Positions 1,834 to 64,000 of a stretch of 64,000 bases of DNA are shown in pieces. Numbering within the stretch: the first letter of the stretch is position 1; each line of letters begins with the position of its first letter. Source of the stretch: Candidatus Bathyarchaeota archaeon (GTDB taxonomy: Archaea; Thermoproteota; Bathyarchaeia; Bathyarchaeales; Bathycorpusculaceae); NCBI GenBank assembly GCA_026014545.1, contig JAOZIH010000001.1, forward strand, positions 186,001 through 250,000. Reading direction: 5' to 3'. The translations under genes were made by a program, and so were the position numbers. The notes beneath the pieces are model-generated. The model saw only the letters and a list, made by a program, of their open reading frames with translations. It was not told the DNA's origin and did no database searches.

Positions 1834-2166
1834 TTCAAACTTTCCCCTTAACATGATCAAATGATGTTTAGTGTTTTTATATACTTTTTAGCAATTTTCA
1901 TAGATCAAGTTTATCCACGGCATTCTGCAATAAGCCTCTAAGGCTAAAAATGGCGAATTTTACGGATTTCTCTGCCTTACATGGCTTAATGCAAATGCCT
2001 AAATTTTGTTTAGATGATTATTCTGTCTATTATTTCGAGTATGGGTGATTAAATGTCCTTATTTTATTTTCTTAAACGTTTTATGCGAGTTAAGGATAAA
2101 ATAATTGTAAATAGTAGGTATTTGTGTCCAATATCTGCGAAGCATCCCGAAATGACAGCCAAAAAT

Positions 2167-2260
2167 AAGTTTGGGTCGGGCGGGCGAAGTTGACAGGCGG
2201 AGATGGGCAGTCCTCCTCCAGAGTTCACTCATGATTCCGCTGTCAACTCGCCTAAACTTT
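2167..2260 (+). ncRNA. Candidate structured RNA: long hairpin in the 500-bp spacer before galT
   Basis: The spacer 1861-2388 has no gene. Within it AGTTGACAG pairs with CTGTCAACT (9 bp), flanked inside by CGGA/TCCG and outside by GGCG/CGCC and AAGTTT/AAACTT. The helix is interrupted only by single-base bulges and one 5'-side internal loop. The apical 30-odd nt are pyrimidine-rich. The region is far more GC-rich than its flanks, which is typical of stable RNAs in an AT-rich archaeal genome. Strand is not known. I see no clear C/D, H/ACA, SRP or RNase P signature. Confidence 0.4.
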
Positions 2261-2388
2261 TAATTTTCATAAGTATGGCTAATAGCCGTTTAATTTACGC
2301 TTTTAGGGCACACCATTAAGTATGTGGGTGTTTTCGGAAACGCTAAAATGCCGCTAGTGTATCTCTAATTCGACGGGTGCTTACCTTA

Positions 2389-3432
2389 ATGGCTTATAAT
2401 GAGTTAAGAAAAGATTATTTGCTAAACCGCTGGGTCGTGATTGCCACCGAACGTAGCAGAAGACCCACAGACTTCGCTAAACAAAAAACTGAGGCAGCGC
2501 AAGGCAGCATCTGCCCTTTATGTGTAGGCAATGAGCATATGACGCCGCCAGCAGTTTTGCTTTACTTGAAACAGCAGAACGGCGAAATAAAAAAAGGCAA
2601 AGATGGTGATGGCACGCGCCCTAAGAATTGGCTTATTCGTGTTATCCCAAACCTATATCCCGCGTTTATTCCCCCAAAAGAAACGCAGAACAGGTCTCTA
2701 AGGATATTAGAGGGGGAGAATTTCGGTTACGCCATTGGGCATCACGAGGTTTTGGTGGAATCACCGAATCATGATGAGCAACCAGCGGATGCCAGCTTGC
2801 CACAGCTAAAGCACTTAATCAACGCGTACATTGACAGGCTACGAGAGTTAGCAGCGAAACCCTACGTAAAGTATGTTTCGATTTTCCGCAATTATGGAAA
2901 GGAAGCAGGTGCCTCACTTTCGCATGCACACAGCCAAATAATCACTACACCCATCATTCCAAGAATTGTGGAGGAAGAGATGGAAGCAAGCAAAAACTTT
3001 TATGAACAACACAAAAAATGTGCTTTTTGCGACATAATAAAAAAAGAAGCAAAAGGCCCACGGCTGATTCTTGAGAACACACACTTTCTGGTTTTCGCGC
3101 CTTACGCCAGCACACATCCGCTAGAATTCTGGATACTTCCCAGGAAGCACGATATAAACATGCTTAACCTAACAGATGCTGAAGTAACCGCATTCGCTGA
3201 AACTTTAAAAATAACCCTAAAAGCGTTAAAAGATGTTGTGAATGATCCACCCTACAATTATGGCTTCCATTTGGCGCTTGACAACGCCGCAAAGAGCTAT
3301 TATCATTGGCATTTGGAAGTTTACCCGAAACTAGCTATCTGGGCAGGGTTCGAAAAAAACACTGGAGTATACATAAACACTGTAAAACCCGAGACCACCG
3401 CAGTAGAGCTTAGAAAAGCAATAACAGTTTAG
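2389..3432 (+). CDS. galT: Galactose-1-phosphate uridylyltransferase
   Basis: Leloir-pathway enzyme exchanging UMP between UDP-glucose and galactose-1-phosphate through a uridylylated histidine. The HIT-fold active site HAHSQ lies near residues 179-183, the second half carries HWHLEVYP near residue 306, and CPLC near residue 42 fits the zinc site. The N terminus NELRKDYLLNRWVVIA is typical for archaeal members. I prefer the ATG at 2389 over a GTG at 2377, since family members begin just before NELR. The stop overlaps the convergent debranching-enzyme stop by 4 bases. Length 347 residues is normal. Related nucleotidyltransferases acting on other sugar phosphates cannot be excluded. Confidence 0.9.
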   Translation: MAYNELRKDYLLNRWVVIATERSRRPTDFAKQKTEAAQGSICPLCVGNEHMTPPAVLLYLKQQNGEIKKGKDGDGTRPKNWLIRVIPNLYPAFIPPKETQNRSLRILEGENFGYAIGHHEVLVESPNHDEQPADASLPQLKHLINAYIDRLRELAAKPYVKYVSIFRNYGKEAGASLSHAHSQIITTPIIPRIVEEEMEASKNFYEQHKKCAFCDIIKKEAKGPRLILENTHFLVFAPYASTHPLEFWILPRKHDINMLNLTDAEVTAFAETLKITLKALKDVVNDPPYNYGFHLALDNAAKSYYHWHLEVYPKLAIWAGFEKNTGVYINTVKPETTAVELRKAITV

Positions 3433-5483
3433 AATTGCAGCAACTCTTTCTCGTATCTCGGCCCAATCTGCAGCACATCTTCCAAGTAAGCCCGCAATGG
3501 TTCAGCGACGCTCCAAGCTTGCGCGATACAACCGCGTGGCGTATGCGGCGGGTCACCGTCAAAAATTTCGCTTAAAGTGCCAAGTCCTGCTTGAGTGAGC
3601 TGTTGAGTAAATAAAGGCATTAGAAGATTCTGCAACTCTTGCGCGCTGCTACTTTTTGTCTTATGAACTGACGTTACATAGGGACCAAGTAGCCAAGGCC
3701 AAACAGTACCGTTATGATATGCTTGATCTCTGCTTCGCCTATCACCCACGTACATACTCTTATACTTTGGGTCTCCTCGCGCTAGAGTTCGTAAACCAAA
3801 AGGTGTTAAAAGCTCTCGACGAACCACATCGACAATACGCTTGCATTTCTCAGCCTCTGGCATAGCGAAATCCAGCGCTACCGCGATTATTTGATTAGGC
3901 CTAAGTGATGCATCGCAACCTGATTCGTTGATTACATCAAACAAAAAACCACCTTCACTATTCCAAAATTTTTCATTGAAACTCTTTCGTGCAGCAAGCG
4001 CCATTTCAGCGTATTTTTCGGCCAAACTTTTTTCCTCAAACTTTTCAGATAGTTGCTGCATCGTCATCAGCGCGTTATACCATAATGCTTGTATTTCTAC
4101 CGCCTTTCCAGTCCGAGGAGTAATCGCTTTACCATCCACTTCCGCATCCATCCATGTAAGCCGCGACCCATGAGCAAGTAAACCGTCGCTGTCTAAATGT
4201 ATTCCGAAATCAGTGCCGCGCTCATAATATTCGACAATTCTTTTCAGTCCTTCCCAAAGCTGTTTCTGAACAAAATTGAAGTCGCCTGTGTACTTCAAAA
4301 ACTGCAAAACAGCATTAACGTACCATAACGTAGCATCAACCGTATTATAGAAGGCTTCACCACACCTATCCTCTACGCAGTTAGGGATTAATCCTCGCTT
4401 AGAGTACGCCATAAAATTTAGGAGAATATCCCGCGCATCTTCAAATCGGCCCGTCACCAGCAATAAGCCAGGGAGAGAAACGAATGTATCCCGACCCCAC
4501 GTTTCAAACCAGAAGTAACCAGCTAAAACTGAAGGTCTGCTATCAGAACCTTTGACAACGAAGGTATCTGCGGCTAAAAGAAGCCAATTCAGCCAATCGC
4601 TTGCTACCACATTACTATGCTTATCGTAAAACTTAGCTAATAAGCTCGCGCGCCACGCAATCTCGGATGCCGACTGTGCCTTAACGCTGCTTATTGAATT
4701 TCCAAGTGTTTCCAGCACTGTAGCGCATTCTTGGCTATTTTCGCTTGCCGCTGAAATTATAGCAAACTCGGTCAGCCCATGCGGCAATTCCAGTTCAAAG
4801 TATCCTGGCTGATAGCAATCATCCAAGTGACTTTCGCCTCGATTGGCTTCTTCACGATAGTATAAGCGCTCTATCCAAACAGGCTTCTCAACGAAATTGC
4901 CGAGGGTAGTTTGGGCAGAAATAGTAGCCTTTGGCGCATCAAAGCTTACTGTTACTTTGTTGCTCTCCTGCTGCTGACTGAAACTCATAGAGGCTCTCTG
5001 TCTAACGGAGTGAAAGTGTCTACATGTGAGTAATGGAAAAATTCTAAATGTTACAGCCTCATTGTTGTTGTTTAATACTTGGTAGATTACCGCTACAGCG
5101 TTTTTCTTTTTAGGCATAAAAATTGTCTTTTTGACTTCGACAGCGTGCACAACGTAATTATATTCGGGAAAAGGGGATACTGAAAACTGGTTCAGGAACA
5201 GGTGGCCTTTTGGATGAATCGCGTCATGGAACTCGTTAACGCCAAGTTGCTGAACAGTGTTACCGACTTGAATAGTTTCGTCCAATTTTGCGAGACAGAC
5301 TGTGCGGTCTCCAGGTGGATGCAAAGAAGCGACTAGTAGGCCATGATATTTTCTTGTGTTTAAGCCTAAAACAGTGCTGGCTGCATAGCCGCCTAACCCG
5401 TTTGTGATAAGCCACTCTTTCTGGACGGCATAATCAAAATTCACAAGCTCTTCTCTAGCGAGGCGTATGATGGGCAATTCCAT
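3429..5483 (-). CDS. Archaeal glycogen debranching enzyme (amylo-alpha-1,6-glucosidase type)
   Basis: An N-terminal GDE_N-like domain (EWLITNGLGGYAASTVLGLNTRKYHG and on) is followed by a C-terminal six-hairpin glucosidase domain. The latter is recognisable by AGYFWFETWGRDTFVSLPGLLL, TWMDAEVDG, YHNGTVWPWLLGPY and GTLSEIFDGDPP, which hold the acidic catalytic residues. At 684 residues it matches the single-polypeptide archaeal enzymes. It probably removes branches from glycogen in the cytoplasm. It is the last gene of a tight three-gene set (tpiA, DUF89, GDE) with only 1 base to the gene before it, which ties it to central sugar metabolism. Confidence 0.9.
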   Translation of the reverse strand: MELPIIRLAREELVNFDYAVQKEWLITNGLGGYAASTVLGLNTRKYHGLLVASLHPPGDRTVCLAKLDETIQVGNTVQQLGVNEFHDAIHPKGHLFLNQFSVSPFPEYNYVVHAVEVKKTIFMPKKKNAVAVIYQVLNNNNEAVTFRIFPLLTCRHFHSVRQRASMSFSQQQESNKVTVSFDAPKATISAQTTLGNFVEKPVWIERLYYREEANRGESHLDDCYQPGYFELELPHGLTEFAIISAASENSQECATVLETLGNSISSVKAQSASEIAWRASLLAKFYDKHSNVVASDWLNWLLLAADTFVVKGSDSRPSVLAGYFWFETWGRDTFVSLPGLLLVTGRFEDARDILLNFMAYSKRGLIPNCVEDRCGEAFYNTVDATLWYVNAVLQFLKYTGDFNFVQKQLWEGLKRIVEYYERGTDFGIHLDSDGLLAHGSRLTWMDAEVDGKAITPRTGKAVEIQALWYNALMTMQQLSEKFEEKSLAEKYAEMALAARKSFNEKFWNSEGGFLFDVINESGCDASLRPNQIIAVALDFAMPEAEKCKRIVDVVRRELLTPFGLRTLARGDPKYKSMYVGDRRSRDQAYHNGTVWPWLLGPYVTSVHKTKSSSAQELQNLLMPLFTQQLTQAGLGTLSEIFDGDPPHTPRGCIAQAWSVAEPLRAYLEDVLQIGPRYEKELLQF

Positions 5484-5484
5484 T

Positions 5485-6366
5485 TTAGGGCATCAGCTTC
5501 GCGATGTTCTTATCGCGTGGCGCACAGAAATAGTTTGCTACAGGATTACATTTAGTCCTAAACAGAAGCAAATGAGGCTTAGTAAGCTTATACTCAGTCA
5601 AAGTCTCAGCATAACCCATACCCTTTGCGAAAACAAGCTCGGCGGCATCATAAACTTTCAGGAATTCTGGGGAAACCTCGCTTTTCAGCAAACCCACAGC
5701 GTCGGTGCCTGTGGTTAATATGTTATCCGCCAGCTTATCCATACCTGAAAATTCCACATCTTCCAATGTGGCATCGTTAATTACTGGCCCGCCCTTAACA
5801 ATGTATGTCACTTTCAGCCCCATGTTTTTCAGCTGCTCCACCAGCAACGTATCAAAAACAATCTCACCAGCGTTATCAGCTAAATACAAAACGCTGTTTG
5901 CCTTTTTCGCCAATTCATAAGCCTTGTCAATATCGTCTACTACCAAGTCTTTTGCTGCATCCCGAAAAGTCTTAGTCAGAGTTTTGAAGGAAAACTTGTG
6001 GCCGGGAATATCGAATTCCATTATGTTGCCCACTATGGCGCATAGGCAGGCTTTCTTAAACCGTTCCTGCTGCGTGTAACCTGCTTCCACAATTTTACGC
6101 GCATACGGCAGCATTTTCATGGCTTTCTCATTGCTCATTTTCTTGCTTCGCTTGTACGGATCATTATTGCCTGTCAACCGCTTTATCAAGCGGTCTCGTT
6201 TCGTGCCTATATCCGCTGGAATAACTGTCGGCCTGAATTCCCTGTTTAATAATTTTATAACTTCGTGTATTGCTCTGAAGCGGAGCGCAGGATTTGTTGT
6301 GGCTTCGTAAACTTCCACTGTTGCCCGCGCGAGTAAACAAGAGGCGCATTCTGCTTCAACTTTCAC
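5485..6366 (-). CDS. DUF89 / ARMT1-like damage-control phosphatase
   Basis: Metal-dependent phosphatase family acting on damaged or excess sugar phosphates. Hallmarks are a cysteine pair at the N terminus (CASC), the motif YLADNAGEIVFD for the metal and phosphate site, VKGGPVINDAT and KGMGYAET. The length of 293 residues is typical of the archaeal stand-alone form. The start is a GTG. It sits between triosephosphate isomerase (22 bp upstream) and the debranching enzyme (1 bp downstream), a context that fits repair or control of glycolytic intermediates. The actual substrate is not known from sequence. Confidence 0.85.
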   Translation of the reverse strand: MKVEAECASCLLARATVEVYEATTNPALRFRAIHEVIKLLNREFRPTVIPADIGTKRDRLIKRLTGNNDPYKRSKKMSNEKAMKMLPYARKIVEAGYTQQERFKKACLCAIVGNIMEFDIPGHKFSFKTLTKTFRDAAKDLVVDDIDKAYELAKKANSVLYLADNAGEIVFDTLLVEQLKNMGLKVTYIVKGGPVINDATLEDVEFSGMDKLADNILTTGTDAVGLLKSEVSPEFLKVYDAAELVFAKGMGYAETLTEYKLTKPHLLLFRTKCNPVANYFCAPRDKNIAKLMP

Positions 6367-6388
6367 GGCTGCTCACACATGACTATTG

Positions 6389-7078
<690 letters not shown>

Positions 7079-7186
7079 TCACCTGGGCTAGTGGTTAGTG
7101 TAAAATGTTAATATTATTTGCCATTTCCTAACACTAAATTCAATGGCAACAAACGTTTTAATTCAGAAAACACCAATGCCTACCCC

Positions 7187-7621
7187 CTAAAGAACTTGGT
7201 TCCCAGCGTTTCTTCGACACTTGGCAAGATAATCTTTAATCATCTGTGCATGCTCAAAAGCCAATATTTCAGGTAGCTCGCTTACGCTAAAAAGTTTGAT
7301 TTCGTCAATTTCGCTTTCCTGCCTTCTGATTTCTCCTCCAACAACATTCACCAGAAAACACGCGGGATAATAATCGTACTCCACGCCATCCTGCACTCCC
7401 TGCTCATGATACTCACCTATCTTGCGCACTATTTTCACATCTAAACCAGTTTCCTCTTTCACTTCGCGGACTATAGTTTGCTCAACTGTTTCGCCAGGGT
7501 CAACTCTTCCGCCGGGCAAAGCCCAAAATCCGCAGAAGGGCACAGTTCGCCGCTTGATTAGTAAAATTTTGTTTGGCGAGAAAGGGATTATGGCGGTTGT
7601 GGTTCTTCCTGCAAACTTCAT
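7187..7621 (-). CDS. Nudix hydrolase
   Basis: The Nudix box is complete as GGRVDPGE, seven residues, then REVKEETGL, matching GX5EX7REUXEEXGU. The N terminus (TTTAIIPFSPNKILLIKRR) and FWALPGG resemble MutT/ADP-ribose pyrophosphatase-like members that act on nucleoside diphosphate derivatives. The length of 144 residues is a single domain. The gene is alone, reading towards tpiA with a roughly 120-bp spacer. The substrate is undetermined. Confidence 0.9.
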   Translation of the reverse strand: MKFAGRTTTAIIPFSPNKILLIKRRTVPFCGFWALPGGRVDPGETVEQTIVREVKEETGLDVKIVRKIGEYHEQGVQDGVEYDYYPACFLVNVVGGEIRRQESEIDEIKLFSVSELPEILAFEHAQMIKDYLAKCRRNAGNQVL

Positions 7622-7734
7622 TGCGCGCGCCCCTTTGTTAAGCGGTTATTTTCATTCTTCAAGTTATTAGTATTGCAACAAAGAAGGCGTATCCTAAGAG
7701 AGAGATATGAAAAAAGAGAGCGGCAATGCGAATT

Positions 7735-8316
7735 TTAGGCTTTCTTTCCCTTCTCCAAAAGCTTGTGATTCTTCGCTGGCACAAAAACAGCCGCGGCAAC
7801 AGTGGTTGTCCACAAGCCATTTTTGTCGCCTGTAGCTGACTGCGTTATGTTGGTTGTCTTGATTATCAACCCGCTGGTTTTGAACAGTTTTTTTCTTTCA
7901 TCCCATGCTGTTTCAGGGTCAAAGGCAATGCCCATTGTGGTGGCAAGCATCGTTGCAGCCAAATCTTCCGCGTAATCGCCAGCTACCTCGTCCGTTTGCC
8001 CAAACGAGTGATGCTCAGATAGGTAGCCGTACTGGTTTTTGCCTGAAGGAATTGCCACGCCAATGGATGCGGCAACCAGCCTGTGCGGTTCGTTGGTGGC
8101 GTTTCTGGCTAAAACCACAAAGGTGATTTCGCCAGGCTGGACCATTTTCAAGCCTTGTTCGCGTGAAATCATTTCACATCCAGGAGGAACAATGCTGGAA
8201 ACGTTAACAAGATTGCAGTGATGTATACCAGCGTTTCTTAAGGCTAATTCGAAACTTTGAAGTTGCTCTTTGTGTTTGCCCACGCCCTTCGTTAGGAAGA
8301 AGTATTTAGGTATCAT
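7735..8316 (-). CDS. pdaD: Pyruvoyl-dependent arginine decarboxylase
   Basis: Makes agmatine from arginine for polyamines and, in archaea, for the agmatidine modification of tRNA-Ile2. The proenzyme self-cleaves between the two serines of NVSSIVPPG near residue 40, giving a beta chain and a pyruvoyl-capped alpha chain. That motif and the downstream GVAIPS and [18 protein letters not shown] segments are intact. The length of 193 residues is slightly longer than the 165-residue Methanocaldococcus enzyme. It is divergent from orc1/cdc6 with a 124-bp spacer between. Confidence 0.93.
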
Positions 8317-8440
8317 TTTTTATATCGCAATTACGAATTGCAGTATGCATTTATTAGCCTTTTGCTTCAAAAATAATGATTAATCAGCAAATGAAAAGAA
8401 TAAGCCAAGTGTAAATATAATTAATTGAGGTTTAAATGTC

Positions 8441-9625
8441 GTGGCTCCTCCTCTGAGCGTGTTCAAAGACGAGGCAAAGCTTGATATTAACTACATTCCT
8501 CGCCGTCTGCCCCACAGAGAAAAAGAACACCGTTTGCTAATGGAATTCTTCAATTTCCTGCTGCAATCTCCAGGAAAAATGAGCCAGCGAGTTATCGTAA
8601 CAGGCGAGGTTGGTACTGGAAAAACTGCGCTTGCCCAGCGCTTTGGAGCAGACATAACCTCCGAGACAGCCAAAAAAGGGGTAAACTTTCGCTATGTACA
8701 TGTTAACTGTCGAGAGTACCGCGGCAAATTCTTTCTCATAATGCAGCATGCGCTTGCTACTTTCCGCCCGACTTTTCCAAAGAGAGGTTACTCTGCAGAA
8801 GAGCTTCTAAAAACCTTAATGCAGGTTCTAGACGAAGAAAACGCGTACATCATTCTAACCTTAGATGAAGCTGATGCCCTCATTGAGCGCGAAGGCTCAG
8901 AAACCGTTTACAAGCTAACGCGGCTGCAAGAAATAAGAACAGGCGAACCTCAGAGAATGTCGCTTATTTTCATTATGCGCGACTTGAAGGCGATAGAGAA
9001 GTTAGACGCAAGCTCAAGAAGCACAATGCAACAGAACGTAATCAGGCTGGAGAAATACCAAAAAAGTCAGCTTATAGATATTTTAACCGAAAGGGTTTCC
9101 ATGGCTTTTGCGCCGTCAACAGTCGCGGAAGACGTTGTCAGCCTTATAGCTGAGTTGGGAGTTACTGAAAATGGAAATGCCCGCTTCGCCATTGAGCTTT
9201 TATGGCGTGCTGGAAAATACGCTGACGCGGAAAACCTTGGTTCAGTTACGCCGGAATGCGTTCGGAAAGCGGTTTCCAGCATAATTCCAACTCTCAGAAA
9301 AAGCGATTTGGCTTCGCTTGGGCTTCATGAGAAACTGTTTCTGCTTGGCGCCGCCAGATTTTTCAAGGAGAACCAAAACGCCTACGCTTCATTGTCCGAG
9401 GTGGAGCAGATTTACGCCGTGGTTTGCGAGGAATTCGGTGAACAGCCGCACAGTCACACTCAACTCTGGAAGTATGTTCAATTTTTCTCTGCACTGGGCA
9501 TATTGAAAACTGAAGTTACAGCAACAAGCACACGAGGCAGAGCAACAAGGATTTCTTTGCCGTCAATATCAGCTTACGAGCTGGAGAAAGAATTAAGTGC
9601 CACTTTAGAAAAAAGGCGAAAGTGA
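8441..9625 (+). CDS. Orc1/Cdc6-family replication initiator AAA+ ATPase
   Basis: Archaeal origin-binding and helicase-loading protein. AAA+ motifs are clear: Walker A GEVGTGKTAL near residue 54, Walker B ILTLDEADALI near residue 148, and sensor-1/arginine-finger segments after. The C-terminal 120 residues form the winged-helix DNA-binding domain, ending near RGRATRISLP. The start is a GTG set by GAGGT about 8 nt upstream; the overlapping ATG at 8436 leads to a stop after six codons. Such genes often sit beside an origin. The 124-bp upstream spacer has one GCAATT/AATTGC repeat (8327-8341) but no origin-box array I can recognise. Confidence 0.9.
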   Translation: MAPPLSVFKDEAKLDINYIPRRLPHREKEHRLLMEFFNFLLQSPGKMSQRVIVTGEVGTGKTALAQRFGADITSETAKKGVNFRYVHVNCREYRGKFFLIMQHALATFRPTFPKRGYSAEELLKTLMQVLDEENAYIILTLDEADALIEREGSETVYKLTRLQEIRTGEPQRMSLIFIMRDLKAIEKLDASSRSTMQQNVIRLEKYQKSQLIDILTERVSMAFAPSTVAEDVVSLIAELGVTENGNARFAIELLWRAGKYADAENLGSVTPECVRKAVSSIIPTLRKSDLASLGLHEKLFLLGAARFFKENQNAYASLSEVEQIYAVVCEEFGEQPHSHTQLWKYVQFFSALGILKTEVTATSTRGRATRISLPSISAYELEKELSATLEKRRK

Positions 9626-9631
9626 GGCGTC

Positions 9632-9898
9632 ATGGAAATAGAGGAAGTTTTTTCTTCAAAACCGAGACTGAAAATCATCAAACTTGTTGCGCAGCTAGGC
9701 TCGCTTAATGTTTCTGACATTGCTCGCAGAATTAACTTAAATTATTCTGCAACAAGTAAGCATTTAAAGCTGCTGGAGGCGGAGGGGATACTAACACAAA
9801 GGGTTTACGGGAGAATTCGCATGTACAAATTCAATGAAAACTCGCTTAGGGCTAAGGCTGTGCAAAATCTAATAGACGCGTGGGAACAGAATAAATAG
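9632..9898 (+). CDS. ArsR-type winged-helix transcription regulator
   Basis: An 88-residue single-domain protein. The helix-turn-helix reads as SLNVSDIARRINLNYSATS followed by KHLKLLEAEGILTQ, then the beta-wing RVYGRIRMYKFN. There are no cysteine pairs of the metal-sensing ArsR kind, so the ligand is unknown. It begins 6 bp after orc1/cdc6 and runs towards moaC, so it may be co-transcribed with either. Regulation of the downstream molybdopterin genes is possible but is only inference. Confidence 0.85.
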   Translation: MEIEEVFSSKPRLKIIKLVAQLGSLNVSDIARRINLNYSATSKHLKLLEAEGILTQRVYGRIRMYKFNENSLRAKAVQNLIDAWEQNK

Positions 9899-9935
9899 GA
9901 AGCAAAGCGTATTCCACTCTCTGGAGGAAAACAAT

Positions 9936-10373
9936 GTGACCATGGTTGATGTGTCCGGCAAGGCGGAAATACTGCGAGAAGCCACTGCGAAAGGGACAAT
10001 TAGGCTGAAGCCTGAGACCGTGAATTTGATAAAAGAAGGAAAAACAGCTAAGGGCGACCCCCTTTATACGGCGAAAATTGCGGGGATTCTTGCGGCTAAA
10101 AAAACGAGTGAGCTAGTGCCGCTCTGCCATCCGTTGCCTTTGACAAACGTGGAAGTTGAAGCTAAAATCATGGATAAAACCACTGTAGAAGTTACAGCAA
10201 CCGTGAAAACTAAAGCCCAGACAGGCGTGGAGATGGAAGCGCTTACCGCGGTTTCTGCGGCGTTGCTGACAATTTGGGATATGGTAAAGCAGTATGAAAA
10301 GGACGCTGCTGGACAGTACCCAGCGACGGCGATAGAAGATATTCATGTTGTAAAAAAGTTGAAGCAGGTGTAG
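9936..10373 (+). CDS. moaC: Cyclic pyranopterin monophosphate synthase MoaC
   Basis: Second enzyme of molybdopterin/tungstopterin synthesis, converting 3',8-cyclo-GTP to cPMP. It has the N-terminal MVDVSGKAEILREA, the active-site SELVPLCHPLPLT and the GVEMEALTAVSAALLTIWD segment with the catalytic acidic residues and lysine that follow. The start is GTG at 9936, decided by GGAGG at 9923-9927 eight nt upstream; ATG at 9942 is less well spaced. It opens a moaC-moaB-moaA operon with 2-5 bp gaps. In such archaea the cofactor most often serves tungsten or molybdenum oxidoreductases. Confidence 0.95.
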   Translation: MTMVDVSGKAEILREATAKGTIRLKPETVNLIKEGKTAKGDPLYTAKIAGILAAKKTSELVPLCHPLPLTNVEVEAKIMDKTTVEVTATVKTKAQTGVEMEALTAVSAALLTIWDMVKQYEKDAAGQYPATAIEDIHVVKKLKQV

Positions 10374-10377
10374 CCGC

Positions 10378-10908
10378 ATGAGCGAGAGCACAAAGCAGCA
10401 TAAGGCCTCAGCGCCTAGACAGCTGAATTTTGCAGTTTTTGTTTGCAGCACCTCACGTTATCAGCAGTTGCAGAGGGGCGAGAAAATAACTGACGCGTCA
10501 GGCGACACGATAGTGGCTTTGCTTATGAACGCAGGGCATAAAGTTCTGCTTAAAAAGATAATTGCAGATGACGTGCAAATGATTAAAGAAGCAGCTGAAG
10601 GCTTTTTGTGCTCTGCAGAACTGGATGCAGTCATATTTTGTGGTGGCACAGGAATCGCTCCGAAAGACGTTACCATCGAGACGGTTTCGCCCTTTTTTGA
10701 GAAGACGCTGCCTGGCTTCGGCGAAATTTTTCGGCGCTTAAGCTACGAGAAGATGGGTTCAGCAGCGGTTATGTCCCGCGCAACTGCTGGCGTTGCTAAG
10801 GGCAAGGTGCTGTTTTGTATCCCTGGTTCTCCTGACGCCGTGCAAATTTCAGTCGAAAAGCTTATTTTGCCCGAAGCGCCTCACATCGTTAGGCACGCTC
10901 GGGAATAA
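10378..10908 (+). CDS. moaB: Molybdenum cofactor biosynthesis protein MoaB
   Basis: MPT adenylyltransferase of the MoaB/MogA fold, which activates molybdopterin before metal insertion; archaeal MoaB replaces MogA. Signature stretches are the GDTIVALLMNAGHKV start of the fold, FCGGTGIAPKDVTIE as the MPT/ATP-binding loop, and FCIPGSPDAVQ near the C terminus. At 176 residues it is normal. The N terminus carries an extra charged stretch of about 15 residues. It lies between moaC and moaA, 4 and 2 bp away, so translation is probably coupled. Confidence 0.93.
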   Translation: MSESTKQHKASAPRQLNFAVFVCSTSRYQQLQRGEKITDASGDTIVALLMNAGHKVLLKKIIADDVQMIKEAAEGFLCSAELDAVIFCGGTGIAPKDVTIETVSPFFEKTLPGFGEIFRRLSYEKMGSAAVMSRATAGVAKGKVLFCIPGSPDAVQISVEKLILPEAPHIVRHARE

Positions 10909-10910
10909 CG

Positions 10911-11843
10911 ATGACCTTGATAGACAAATATGGCAGACCTCTGCTCAACCTTAGAATAGCCGTCACGCCGAGATGCAATCTCCGCTGCGATTACTGCCAC
11001 AGAGAAGGCGAAGAATGCAGCCTAAACAAAGCTACTGAAGAGATGACTGTCGAAGAAATCGTTCGAATCGCCAGAATCGCTGTTGAGCTAGGCATCAACC
11101 GAATTAAGCTGACAGGTGGCGAGCCGCTCATGCGGAAGGACCTCTGCGAAGTAGTCAAGGGCATCGCTGCAATACCCGGCTTGAAGGACCTTTCGATGAC
11201 AACTAATGGCAGCATGCTTGCCGCTCGAGCGCAAGAACTCTTTGCATGCGGCTTAAGACGCGTGAACATCAGTTTGCCAACTTTGAACAGCGAAGTTTAC
11301 CGTAAACTTACTGAAGGGCAAATTGAACGAGTGTTAGACGGCGTTAAAGCCGCAGTTAAGGCTGGCTTCCAGCCAGTCAAGCTTAACATGGTTGTTCTAA
11401 ACGGCGTTAACGTTGACGATGTGCATGACATGATGGATTTTGCGCGGCAAACAGGCACAATACTGCAGCTCATCGAGCTTGACCCAGTTAACATTGACGA
11501 CGCATACTTCTCGGTTTATCACAACTTCCTAGATAAACACGAGGAAATGCTACGCCAGAAAGCCGTGAAAGTAGAGACCAGACGTTTCATGAATAACCGC
11601 CACATTTACTATTTGCCCGACGTAACAGTCGAAGTTGTGCATCCGACTGAGAACGGCGAGTTCTGCGCTCACTGCACAAGGCTACGGGTTACAAGCGACG
11701 GCAAACTGAAAACCTGTCTCATGCGAAATGACAATTTAGTTGACATTTTGACGCCTATGCGCCGCGGCGCAAGCGACGAAGAACTGAAAGAGCTTTTTGT
11801 ACGCGCGAACCAGTTAAGAGAGCCCTATAATAAAACCTTGTAA
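10911..11843 (+). CDS. moaA: GTP 3',8-cyclase MoaA (radical SAM)
   Basis: First enzyme of molybdopterin synthesis. The N-terminal radical-SAM cluster CNLRCDYC near residues 26-33, the TGGEPLMRKD SAM-binding motif, and the second cluster CAHC plus a later Cys (KTCLMR) near residues 250-270 that binds GTP are all visible. The protein is 310 residues, the usual archaeal length. It lacks the bacterial C-terminal GG tail, as archaeal members commonly do. It is the last gene of the moaCBA operon. Confidence 0.94.
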   Translation: MTLIDKYGRPLLNLRIAVTPRCNLRCDYCHREGEECSLNKATEEMTVEEIVRIARIAVELGINRIKLTGGEPLMRKDLCEVVKGIAAIPGLKDLSMTTNGSMLAARAQELFACGLRRVNISLPTLNSEVYRKLTEGQIERVLDGVKAAVKAGFQPVKLNMVVLNGVNVDDVHDMMDFARQTGTILQLIELDPVNIDDAYFSVYHNFLDKHEEMLRQKAVKVETRRFMNNRHIYYLPDVTVEVVHPTENGEFCAHCTRLRVTSDGKLKTCLMRNDNLVDILTPMRRGASDEELKELFVRANQLREPYNKTL

Positions 11844-62528: not shown

Positions 62529-62590
62529 CCTATATGCGAGCAACGGGAAATAATTAATAAGAAAGTCATTGAATTCTTTTATTTTTGTGT

Positions 62591-62634
62591 GCAGCGGTAA
62601 CCAAGCCGGGTCAACGATCAAGGTAGAGTTTAGA
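62591..62634 (+). tRNA. 5' half of an interrupted type II tRNA, probably Leu
   Basis: GCAGCGG (62591-62597) is a 5' acceptor strand that pairs perfectly with CCGCTGC at 63677-63683. TA, ACC and AAGCCGGGTCAA follow as in archaeal tRNA-Leu D-arms. GGTAGAGTTTAGA then resembles an anticodon arm with loop TTTAGA and anticodon UAG (Leu). After this the tRNA sequence stops. The complementary CTCTA of the anticodon stem was not found, and the D-loop is about 6 nt too long, so the exact exon end and identity remain open. Confidence 0.6.
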
Positions 62635-62665
62635 TAATAATTTGCGATGATCTGGTAAGCAAATA

Positions 62666-63399
62666 ATGAGCCAATATAAAGGCATTATTTACCATGCACC
62701 AATGAAAAGTCTTAACGAGGATGTTGCGTTACTTCTTGGGCTTCATGCTGGTGATGGATGGCTTTCAGACAAATGGGGATTATGCTGTGAACAACAGGAC
62801 AGCAACATGTTTCTTCGCGTGATAGAACTTGTTAGAAACGTATAGGCGTTGAACCAATAAAACCTGTGAAATGCTCCTCTGGAAAGGCGGTTATGATTAG
62901 AAGTGGACAATCACAAGTGATAGCTTTTTTCAAGTTTTACGGGTTCCCTCAAGGGAGAAAAGCTGGAATAGTTAGTATTCCAAAACAAATTCTCGAATCA
63001 ACTGATGTGAATATACTGAAAGCATTCTTACTGGGGTTATTTAGTACAGATGGATGCTTCAGTTTTCAGGCTAACCGCGGACCAAGAGTTGAAATTCAAG
63101 TCAAAAGTAAAAAATTGAGAGATGATTTCGTCAGCCTTGCAAGCAGACTTGGCTTCTCATTTAGAGAATATACATATTTTCCACCCAATGGCAAAAATAA
63201 ATCACCATTACATGTTGCTTACACAACGCAGAGAAAACAAGTGATTAGATGGATGGTTGAAATAGGCTCAATCAAAGATTCAGATATCAAGCATTATCAA
63301 GAATGGAAAAAATTAATAGAATGGAATATAGTTTTTAGAGCAAAGGGCAGGGGTAGCAGAGCCTGGCCAAACCCGCACAAAAGCACAAAGGGGGCTTAA
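62666..63399 (+). pseudogene. LAGLIDADG homing endonuclease, frameshifted
   Basis: The first frame (ATG 62666) encodes VALLLGLHAGDGWLSDKWGL, the first LAGLIDADG helix, and ends at TAG 62843-62845. The next frame continues from about 62842 as IGVEPIKPVKCSSGKAVMIR, then FLLGLFSTDGCFSFQANRGP, the second LAGLIDADG motif. A one-base loss near 62840 separates them. Such enzymes cut intron-less copies of their host gene and are encoded in archaeal tRNA and rRNA introns. The ORF runs on into the following tRNA-Leu gene and ends in its intron-like insert. Confidence 0.8.
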
Positions 63400-63459
63400 T
63401 GCGCGGGACTCAAGATCCCGTCTCCTAGGAGTACGTGAGTTCAAATCTCACCCCCTGCA
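63347..63459 (+). tRNA. tRNA-Leu(CAA) with a 28-nt insert in the D-loop
   Basis: Acceptor GCAGGGG/CCCCTGC with discriminator A, D-stem GCA/TGC, anticodon stem CGGGA/TCCCG with loop CTCAAGA (anticodon CAA), variable arm TCTCCTAGGAGTAC and T-arm GTGAG/CTCAC. Removing 63372-63399 gives a standard 85-nt type II tRNA. The insert begins CCCGC, complementary to GCGGG at 63403-63407 in the next exon, and AAGC/GCTT within it forms an inner helix, similar to a bulge-helix-bulge. It therefore looks like a non-canonical intron. The homing endonuclease ORF stop lies inside it. Confidence 0.85.
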
Positions 63460-63644
63460 CCAATGAGTTTTAATATTTTTGGTACGTGTAGCAAAGAAAA
63501 TCGAGATAGCTCATTTCAAATCGATAAAAAGAATTTCAATGATAATGGTTTATTGAAATCAAAACGCATATCGCATAGTTTTGCAAAAATTCTATATCTA
63601 AATAAAAATGTGTTTTGAACTAGGACGCCGATATTGCTGTCGTT

Positions 63645-63684
63645 CATATTAGGTGGTTCGCAGGTTCAAATCCTGCCCGCTGCA
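63645..63684 (+). tRNA. 3' half of the interrupted tRNA
   Basis: CATATTAGGTGGTTC resembles a variable arm, then GCAGG-TTCAAAT-CCTGC (63660-63676) is a perfect T-arm, and CCGCTGC (63677-63683) plus A73 completes the acceptor stem of the 5' half at 62591. GTCGTT just before it (63639-63644) also pairs with AACGAT (62613-62618) in the 5' half. No tRNA body lies immediately upstream, so this is not an independent gene. Confidence 0.65.
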
Positions 63685-64000
63685 TCATAAAACTGTTCTT
63701 TGATGAAAATGGTTTCTTCTAAGCCTCGGAAATGCTCATCTCCAGTGACAACCTTGCCTTTTACGCTTCTGGCTGTGCACAGAATTATTGAGTCTGCCAA
63801 GCTCCAGCCCTTCACTTTCTTCTTCATTTCCACATCAATCTTGCCTGCTTCGGCGGCGGTCTCAAAGTCCAACTCAATTATTCGGCTTTTTGCCCTGATG
63901 AACTCTAGGCGCTTCATTCTTCCCTCCGGCGTTTCGTTGCCAATAGCGATTTCTTATAGCAATTTTCTGCTGATTTCCGCAACAACTATCGTTGGAGTTG
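63666..64000 (-). pseudogene. PIN-domain (VapC-like) gene with in-frame stop, running off the window
   Basis: The frame is open from the window edge as TPTIVVAEISRKLL, meets TAA at 63954-63956, then continues in the same frame as EIAIGNETPEGRMKRLEFIR and on to KGWSLADSIILCTARSVKGK and VTGDEHFRGLEETIFIKE, the C-terminal half of a PIN toxin like the complete VapC at 23741. The expected Arg codon has become a stop. The C-terminal FYDAAGRI reads antisense through the tRNA T-arm, so the original stop has been lost or replaced where the gene meets the tRNA 3' end. Confidence 0.75.

What the first reader, a model, noticed from the sequence alone, without database searches (positions are those of the whole stretch)
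62591..63684. tRNA halves 1 kb apart enclosing a homing endonuclease and a second complete tRNA
Seen: GCAGCGG at 62591 and CCGCTGC-A at 63677 form a perfect 7-bp acceptor stem, each in the correct tRNA context (TA-D-arm; T-arm). Between them lie a two-motif LAGLIDADG gene and an intact tRNA-Leu(CAA). Established: archaeal tRNA introns can encode LAGLIDADG enzymes, but I know of no intron that carries another tRNA gene. Inference: either a giant nested tRNA intron, a trans-spliced/split tRNA, or a tRNA broken by integration next to its neighbour. A second 6-bp complementarity (AACGAT/GTCGTT) supports pairing of the halves, but the anticodon 3' strand is unresolved.
Basis: partly seen in the sequence, partly recalled or inferred. 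Interest (0 to 1): 0.85.

Follow-up and report, generated by a model that had tools for sequence, protein, structure and literature searches.

The report
Endonuclease gene carrying a replacement tRNA
In a bathyarchaeal genome an essential leucine tRNA gene has been broken in two by a small DNA-cutting selfish gene that brought its own spare, differently built copy of that same tRNA, and relatives show the same trick repeated on three or four different tRNAs and even stacked inside itself.

Summary
The halves are real, but they are neither a giant tRNA intron nor a split tRNA, and not Leu(UAG). They are the two ends (native nt 1-33 at 62591-62623; nt 52-88 at 63650-63687) of the lineage's own tRNA-Leu(CAA) gene. 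The middle, with the anticodon, is gone. Between them lie a two-motif LAGLIDADG homing-endonuclease (HE) gene, here with a 1-base frameshift, and a complete, foreign-type tRNA-Leu(CAA) with a 28-nt D-loop intron. It is the only Leu(CAA) I could find in this 98%-complete genome. Empty and occupied sites in relatives show an insertion into the anticodon arm; in one (G020) the insert is 2.6 kb and both native halves survive. The same HE plus same-type tRNA recurs in other genomes. In two, an HE/tRNA unit sits inside the previous rescue tRNA. Analogous units target tRNA-Phe (one HE-tRNA-Phe pair in this same genome) and tRNA-Val, possibly tRNA-Trp. Best reading: a natural 'home-and-rescue' element. 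The HE cuts an essential tRNA gene, and the element supplies a cleavage-resistant copy. Insertion and replacement are shown by comparison; cleavage, homing and resistance are inferred. Nearest precedents: fungal mitochondrial mobile ORFs, a Caldiarchaeum tRNA-Thr insertion, T4 intronless homing.

The parts
62545..62565 (+). Promoter-like motif GGGAAATAATTAATAAGAAAG of the original tRNA-Leu(CAA) gene
   Evidence: Same or nearly the same motif upstream of the native tRNA in many relatives; TATA-like AATTAATA ends 31 nt before the tRNA
62591..62623 (+). 5' remnant of the native tRNA-Leu(CAA), nt 1-33
   Evidence: Alignment; orthologues; left flank orthologous to G002 and G014
62666..63321 (+). 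LAGLIDADG homing-endonuclease gene, two motifs (LLGLHAGDGWLS, LLGLFSTDGCFS), split by a 1-base deletion near 62840 (62666-62845 and 62842-63399 in different frames)
   Evidence: Pfam LAGLIDADG_3 8.5e-10; alignment; frameshift; fold of the G020 orthologue
63304..63321 (+). HE C-terminal codons W-K-K-L-I-E (TGGAAAAAATTAATAGAA), which contain a TATA-like box 28 nt before the inner tRNA; probable promoter of the rescue tRNA
   Evidence: only this end of the HE survives in G025, and also upstream of tRNA#1 and tRNA-A in G159
63347..63459 (+). Inner complete tRNA-Leu(CAA), foreign type (rescue tRNA); CCA encoded at 63460-63462
   Evidence: ARAGORN after intron removal; only GGACTCAAGATC in the genome; exons 74% identical to native, 85% to an intact tRNA of another family
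63372..63399 (+). Putative D-loop intron of the inner tRNA (exact ends uncertain)
   Evidence: Length-variable insertion at the same place in the orthologues of G003, G020, G025, G076; tRNA recognised only without it
63650..63687 (+). 3' remnant of the native tRNA-Leu(CAA), nt 52-88 (T arm, acceptor; CCA mutated to TCA)
   Evidence: Alignment; matching halves downstream of the element in G020 and G159

Best explanation
A selfish 'home-and-rescue' element has inserted into the anticodon arm of the essential tRNA-Leu(CAA) gene. The unit is a LAGLIDADG homing-endonuclease gene plus, just downstream, a complete functional tRNA-Leu(CAA) with a differently built anticodon arm. The endonuclease cuts the resident tRNA gene, and repair copies in the unit. 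The resident gene is left as two useless halves, and the carried tRNA, which should not be cut, keeps the cell alive. The carried tRNA is probably transcribed from the broken gene's promoter and/or from a TATA box embedded in the last codons of the endonuclease gene. Once in place, the tRNA is essential while the endonuclease may decay, as has begun here. Shown by comparison: insertion into the tRNA, loss of the resident gene, sole-copy status of the carried tRNA, recurrence, and nesting. Inferred: cutting, homing, resistance of the carried copy, and expression.
For: Empty versus occupied sites: G034 (empty) and G003 (occupied), same genus, are about 89% identical up to nt 21 of the tRNA, where G003 turns into the element. 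G033 (empty) and G020 (occupied) are collinear to nt 54 of the tRNA; the 3' half (96%) resumes 2.6 kb later, with only the six bases CTCAAG missing. G025: native 5' half ending AAGGAC, HE tail, intact inner-type tRNA. Nesting: in G159 a native-type 5' half, tRNA#1 5' half, second HE, complete tRNA#2, tRNA#1 3' half and native-type 3' half lie in nested order; G016 shows the same order up to its contig end. Sole Leu(CAA) in the genome. Rescue and target anticodon arms differ at 5-6 of 24 positions and swap roles between elements 1 and 2. Phe version: 5' half, HE, then a tRNA-Phe with an anticodon-arm intron that intact genus relatives lack. Two intact HE pairs have dN 0.22-0.26 with saturated dS. 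Full LAGLIDADG fold.
Against: No biochemical proof that these enzymes cut the native site or spare the carried copy. The window's own HE is frameshifted, so this copy may be dead (or misassembled). The 5' break points vary between genomes (nt 21 to about 54), which requires later erosion. The right flank of the window is not orthologous to the relatives checked, so the window's own empty site was not reconstructed on that side. G174 has HE plus tRNA but no visible 5' half, and the own-genome Phe locus shows none either. Mobility between lineages is inferred from patchy distribution.
Confidence: 0.83

Rival explanations
1. Giant tRNA intron: the outer halves are exons of a functional tRNA whose roughly 1-kb intron encodes a HE and another tRNA.
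For: Perfect 7-bp acceptor stem between the halves; archaeal introns can encode LAGLIDADG enzymes (established knowledge).
Against: Native nt 34-51 with the anticodon are in neither half. Of 7125 joins ARAGORN called 343, with 19 conflicting identities mostly Asp and Ser, and no Leu(UAG). G020 lacks exactly the anticodon-loop bases. G003 and G025 show no 3' half nearby.
Confidence: 0.03
2. Split (trans-spliced) tRNA made from two separately transcribed halves.
For: The 5' half keeps its promoter; split tRNAs exist in Archaea (PMC3218864, found; not read in full).
Against: No anticodon in either half; 3' half lost or unseen in several relatives with the same 5' half; the complete Leu(CAA) beside it makes it unnecessary.
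Confidence: 0.02
3. Ordinary integration of a tyrosine-integrase plasmid or virus at a tRNA attachment site, with tRNA reconstitution; the HE is a passenger.
For: Such elements often target tRNA genes and leave repeats of one tRNA end. A Caldiarchaeum tRNA-Thr locus with a 5' fragment, a 1.87-kb insert and a complete intron-bearing tRNA was explained this way (PMC3293823).
Against: No integrase ORF is evident in the window insert or among the G020 insert's ORFs. The break is in the anticodon arm, the carried tRNA is complete and of another type, and no repeated attachment sequence was seen. The common part is always HE plus cognate tRNA.
Confidence: 0.08
4. Two neighbouring Leu(CAA) genes existed; one decayed after a HE landed beside it, without any rescue function.
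For: Needs only one insertion and decay.
Against: Genomes with the intact native gene show no inner-type copy beside it. HE or HE remnants adjoin nearly every inner-type tRNA found in this family. Nesting repeats the pattern in order.
Confidence: 0.04

Closest known systems
Fungal mitochondrial mobile ORFs with foreign gene ends (Allomyces atp6; Glomus atp6, atp9, cox2, nad3)
   Same: An endonuclease ORF (LAGLIDADG in most) inserts into an essential gene together with a divergent replacement of the disrupted part; displaced native sequence remains downstream (PMC3630166).
   Different: There the element replaces the 3' end of a protein gene in an organelle. Here a complete tRNA gene is carried, in an archaeal chromosome, for several tRNAs, with serial nesting.
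Caldiarchaeum subterraneum tRNA-Thr(GGU) locus
   Same: 5' tRNA fragment, about 1.9-kb insert with an 813-bp ORF, then a complete tRNA with an extra intron (PMC3293823).
   Different: Explained by integrase-mediated recombination; the ORF was called a recombinase by a statistical classifier, no HE was named, and no 3' half or nesting was described. It may be the same kind of element (untested).
Intronless homing by T4 free-standing endonucleases (SegB in the tRNA region, SegF, SegG)
   Same: A free-standing HE spreads together with adjoining DNA by cutting relatives that lack it; SegB acts on a tRNA region (PMC2988022).
   Different: The HE gene lies beside genes rather than interrupting its target, with cleavage hundreds to thousands of bp away. 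Here the insertion sits in the target tRNA and a whole replacement gene is carried.
Archaeal intron-encoded LAGLIDADG enzymes (I-DmoI, I-Tsp061I) and tRNA introns
   Same: Same enzyme fold; RNA gene as host.
   Different: The host RNA is not restored by splicing.
Synthetic home-and-rescue (HomeR) gene drives
   Same: Endonuclease targets an essential gene and carries a re-coded rescue, using the native promoter (PMC7968924).
   Different: Engineered, CRISPR-based, in flies. It is an analogy, not a relative.

Membership tests
LAGLIDADG homing endonuclease | Two LAGLIDADG motifs with catalytic acidic residues | tested here: met
   GLHAGDG-type and GLFSTDG-type motifs conserved in five relatives; Pfam LAGLIDADG_3
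LAGLIDADG homing endonuclease | LAGLIDADG fold | tested here: met
   AlphaFold model of the G020 orthologue, pLDDT 87; matches VMA-intein HEs 1.4e-11, I-Tsp061I 5e-9, I-DmoI 6e-7
LAGLIDADG homing endonuclease | Site-specific cleavage of the HE-free allele | not testable with these tools
   Needs enzyme assay; insertion point in the anticodon arm is the indirect evidence
Archaeal (BHB) intron encoding a HE | Flanking exons join to a functional RNA | tested here: not met
   Anticodon region absent from both halves; no coherent join
Split tRNA | Halves together hold all mature tRNA positions | tested here: not met
   nt 34-51 missing
Integrase-type tRNA-targeting element | Encodes a tyrosine integrase and has repeated attachment sites | tested here: not met
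   No integrase evident among ORFs of the window insert or the G020 insert; larger forms not excluded
Mobile HE ORF with replacement gene part (fungal mitochondrial type) | HE plus divergent replacement of the disrupted gene, native remnant left behind | tested here: met
   Inner tRNA 74% identical to native; remnants flank it; but a complete tRNA, not a 3' end
Home-and-rescue element (functional class) | Carried copy differs at the presumed cut site | tested here: met
   5-6 of 24 differences in Leu; 30-nt anticodon-arm insertion in Phe
Home-and-rescue element (functional class) | Carried copy is the only functional one | tested here: met
   One Leu(CAA) found in the own genome, completeness 98%; an unusual second gene cannot be fully excluded
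Home-and-rescue element (functional class) | Carried copy resists its own endonuclease | not testable with these tools
   Needs cleavage assay

The most novel reading that the evidence does not exclude
A previously undescribed class of natural home-and-rescue selfish elements in Archaea: homing endonucleases that target essential tRNA genes (Leu-CAA, Phe, Val, perhaps Trp), each carrying a complete cut-resistant tRNA. Rival elements displace one another by inserting into the previous rescue tRNA, thereby moving tRNA genes between lineages and favouring tRNA introns as immunity.
Probability: 0.65. Interest if true: 0.9.

Novelty: new variant of a known kind. Interest (0 to 1): 0.82.

Why it matters
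If right, nature evolved the home-and-rescue logic of modern gene drives in archaeal chromosomes, aimed at tRNA genes. It gives a concrete route by which an essential tRNA gene is replaced by one from another lineage, and comparative support for the idea that tRNA introns protect tRNA genes (here against endonucleases rather than integrases). It also explains tRNA fragments beside complete tRNAs, which might otherwise be read as split genes. The nested loci are a fossil record of successive invasions, and intact enzymes exist for direct tests.

Tried and rejected
Reading the outer tRNA as Leu(UAG): intact Leu(UAG) found. Leu(UAA): an intact intron-bearing candidate exists at C37. Nested intron and trans-splicing: rejected by alignment and by 7125 join tests. 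Strict bulge-helix-bulge for the D-loop intron: single-sequence fold unremarkable (z -0.89), so the ends stay uncertain. Viral relatives of the HE: none in IMG/VR. Wider spread: 398 genomes sampled across the phylum gave only the own genome and G003. A 5' remnant at the own-genome Phe locus: not above shuffles. Right flank of the window against relatives: no match. The chance estimate for HE-tRNA adjacency is rough and not relied on.

Full report
WHAT IS THERE. The window lies in a 508-kb contig of an archaeal MAG (1.86 Mb, 98% complete). A relative carrying the same kind of endonuclease is labelled Candidatus Bathyarchaeota. At the finding, in order on the + strand: a tRNA-type promoter motif (62545-62565); 33 nt closely matching the first 33 nt of the native tRNA-Leu(CAA) (62591-62623); a LAGLIDADG endonuclease (HE) gene with a one-base deletion (62666-63321); a complete tRNA-Leu(CAA) with a 28-nt D-loop intron (63347-63459, CCA encoded); 187 nt of spacer; and the last 37 nt of the native tRNA-Leu(CAA) (63650-63687). 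Native nt 34-51, which hold the anticodon, are missing.

IDENTITY OF THE OUTER tRNA. A search for the 5' motif in 121 related genomes found 39 with exactly one copy each. Of the 30 read, 27 are whole tRNA-Leu(CAA) genes, most behind an AT-rich promoter motif; the exceptions are this window, G003 and G020. The outer halves are therefore the lineage's own Leu(CAA) gene. Leu(UAG), Leu(CAG) and Leu(GAG) are intact elsewhere, and a Leu(UAA) candidate with an intron is at C37. The inner tRNA has the only GGACTCAAGATC in the genome, so it is very probably the only Leu(CAA).

INSERTION SHOWN BY COMPARISON. G034 (empty) and G003 (occupied), same genus, match through nt 21 of the tRNA; G003 then enters the element and rejoins the downstream flank after the inner tRNA, with the 3' half and about 1.2 kb of flank absent. 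G033 (empty) and G020 (occupied) match through nt 54 (...GGCGAAGGA). The 3' half (ATCCTTTCCC..., 96%) resumes 2.6 kb later and only CTCAAG, in the anticodon loop, is missing. The G020 insert holds a 56-aa ORF, an intact HE (228 aa), the inner-type tRNA, a 395-aa protein matching DUF6932 and a 97-aa ORF. The last two also follow the tRNA in G076, another family, where the HE is a pseudogene with 11 stops but the tRNA is intact. G025 keeps a 5' half ending AAGGAC, 27 codons of the HE tail, and the intact tRNA.

NESTING. In G016 the native 5' half is followed by a decayed HE#1, the 5' part of the inner-type tRNA#1 broken in its anticodon stem, an intact second HE (HE#2, opposite strand), and a complete native-type tRNA-Leu(CAA), where the contig ends. 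G159 holds the full doll: native-type 5' half, tRNA#1 5' half, HE#2, complete tRNA#2, tRNA#1 3' half (96%), native-type 3' half, plus a degenerate further tRNA with a HE tail and a further 3' half. I can explain this order only by successive insertions, each into the tRNA delivered by the previous one.

OTHER tRNAs. In this same genome an intact related HE gene sits beside tRNA-Phe, whose anticodon arm is interrupted by an intron. G101 and G039 have a tRNA-Phe 5' half, HE, and complete intron-bearing tRNA-Phe; their genus relatives G058 and G014 have intronless tRNA-Phe. In G101 about 55 nt of leader is duplicated with the tRNA. G020 has a tRNA-Val 5' half, HE, and complete tRNA-Val(CAC) with a D-loop intron. 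G202 has a HE, a tRNA-Trp and a tandem tRNA-Trp 3' end.

MECHANISM (inferred). The HE cuts the resident tRNA in the anticodon arm; recombination with an occupied copy inserts HE plus tRNA. The carried tRNA differs at the presumed site: 5-6 of 24 positions for Leu, with roles exchanged between elements 1 and 2, and a 30-nt intron for Phe. Intron-bearing tRNA-Phe also occurs in some relatives without a detected HE, so the intron alone does not prove a past element. The inner tRNA's exons are 74% identical to the native tRNA but 85% to the intact Leu(CAA) of G095, of another family. The last HE codons, W-K-K-L-I-E, spell TGGAAAAAATTAATAGAA, a TATA-like box 27-33 nt before the tRNA in most copies (40-44 nt in G003, G004 and G076, where the box reads AGATAATA); this tail is what survives when the HE is lost. 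Two pairs of intact HEs differ at dN 0.22-0.26 with saturated synonymous sites, consistent with purifying selection. The predicted fold is a complete two-motif LAGLIDADG enzyme.

LITERATURE. I found no report of HEs carrying a complete replacement tRNA (open-access papers only). Closest are fungal mitochondrial mobile ORFs that replace gene ends (PMC3630166), the Caldiarchaeum tRNA-Thr locus (PMC3293823), T4 intronless homing (PMC2988022) and the engineered home-and-rescue drive (PMC7968924).

LIMITS. No enzyme or RNA data. The window's HE copy is frameshifted. The right flank of the window is not matched in the relatives checked. Break points vary. Close relatives of this HE were found only in this order of Bathyarchaeia. 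Sole-copy status rests on an exact 12-base pattern, a 3-mismatch 5' search and an Rfam scan.

Noticed in passing
G000 contig C7:46050-46802 (L203), same genome, outside the window: Intact second LAGLIDADG gene directly upstream of the only tRNA-Phe found, which has an anticodon-arm intron; no tRNA remnant found upstream.
   Followed up: partly
L159 (G159), reverse-complement 6100-11000: At least five tRNA-Leu(CAA) copies or fragments in about 5 kb in nested order, including a degenerate complete copy and an unpaired outer 3' half.
   Followed up: partly
L100 (G020) 2520-3985 minus; L158 (G076) 1841-3287: Conserved cargo downstream of the rescue tRNA: a 395-aa protein with a nucleotidyltransferase-like motif (DUF6932) and a 97-aa ORF, 74% and 64% identical between families; role unknown.
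   Followed up: no
L160 (G202), about 4330-4500; L116 2170-2337: LAGLIDADG gene followed by tRNA-Trp(CCA) and immediately by a second tRNA-Trp 3' end, possibly a displaced native half.
   Followed up: no
L098, L100, L102: divergent from the HE: 56-aa ORF (83-85% identical between genera), transcribed away from the HE, separated from it by repeats of CTACTAT..AGTAG; possible regulator of the HE. Absent in the window.
   Followed up: no
window 63666-63917 minus: PIN-domain ORF, C-terminal part only, whose end overlaps the tRNA 3' remnant; possibly a truncated toxin gene.
   Followed up: no
window 62842-63399: HE reading frame runs through the start of the inner tRNA and stops at the end of its intron, so the last codons of the ORF are tRNA sequence.
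   Followed up: partly
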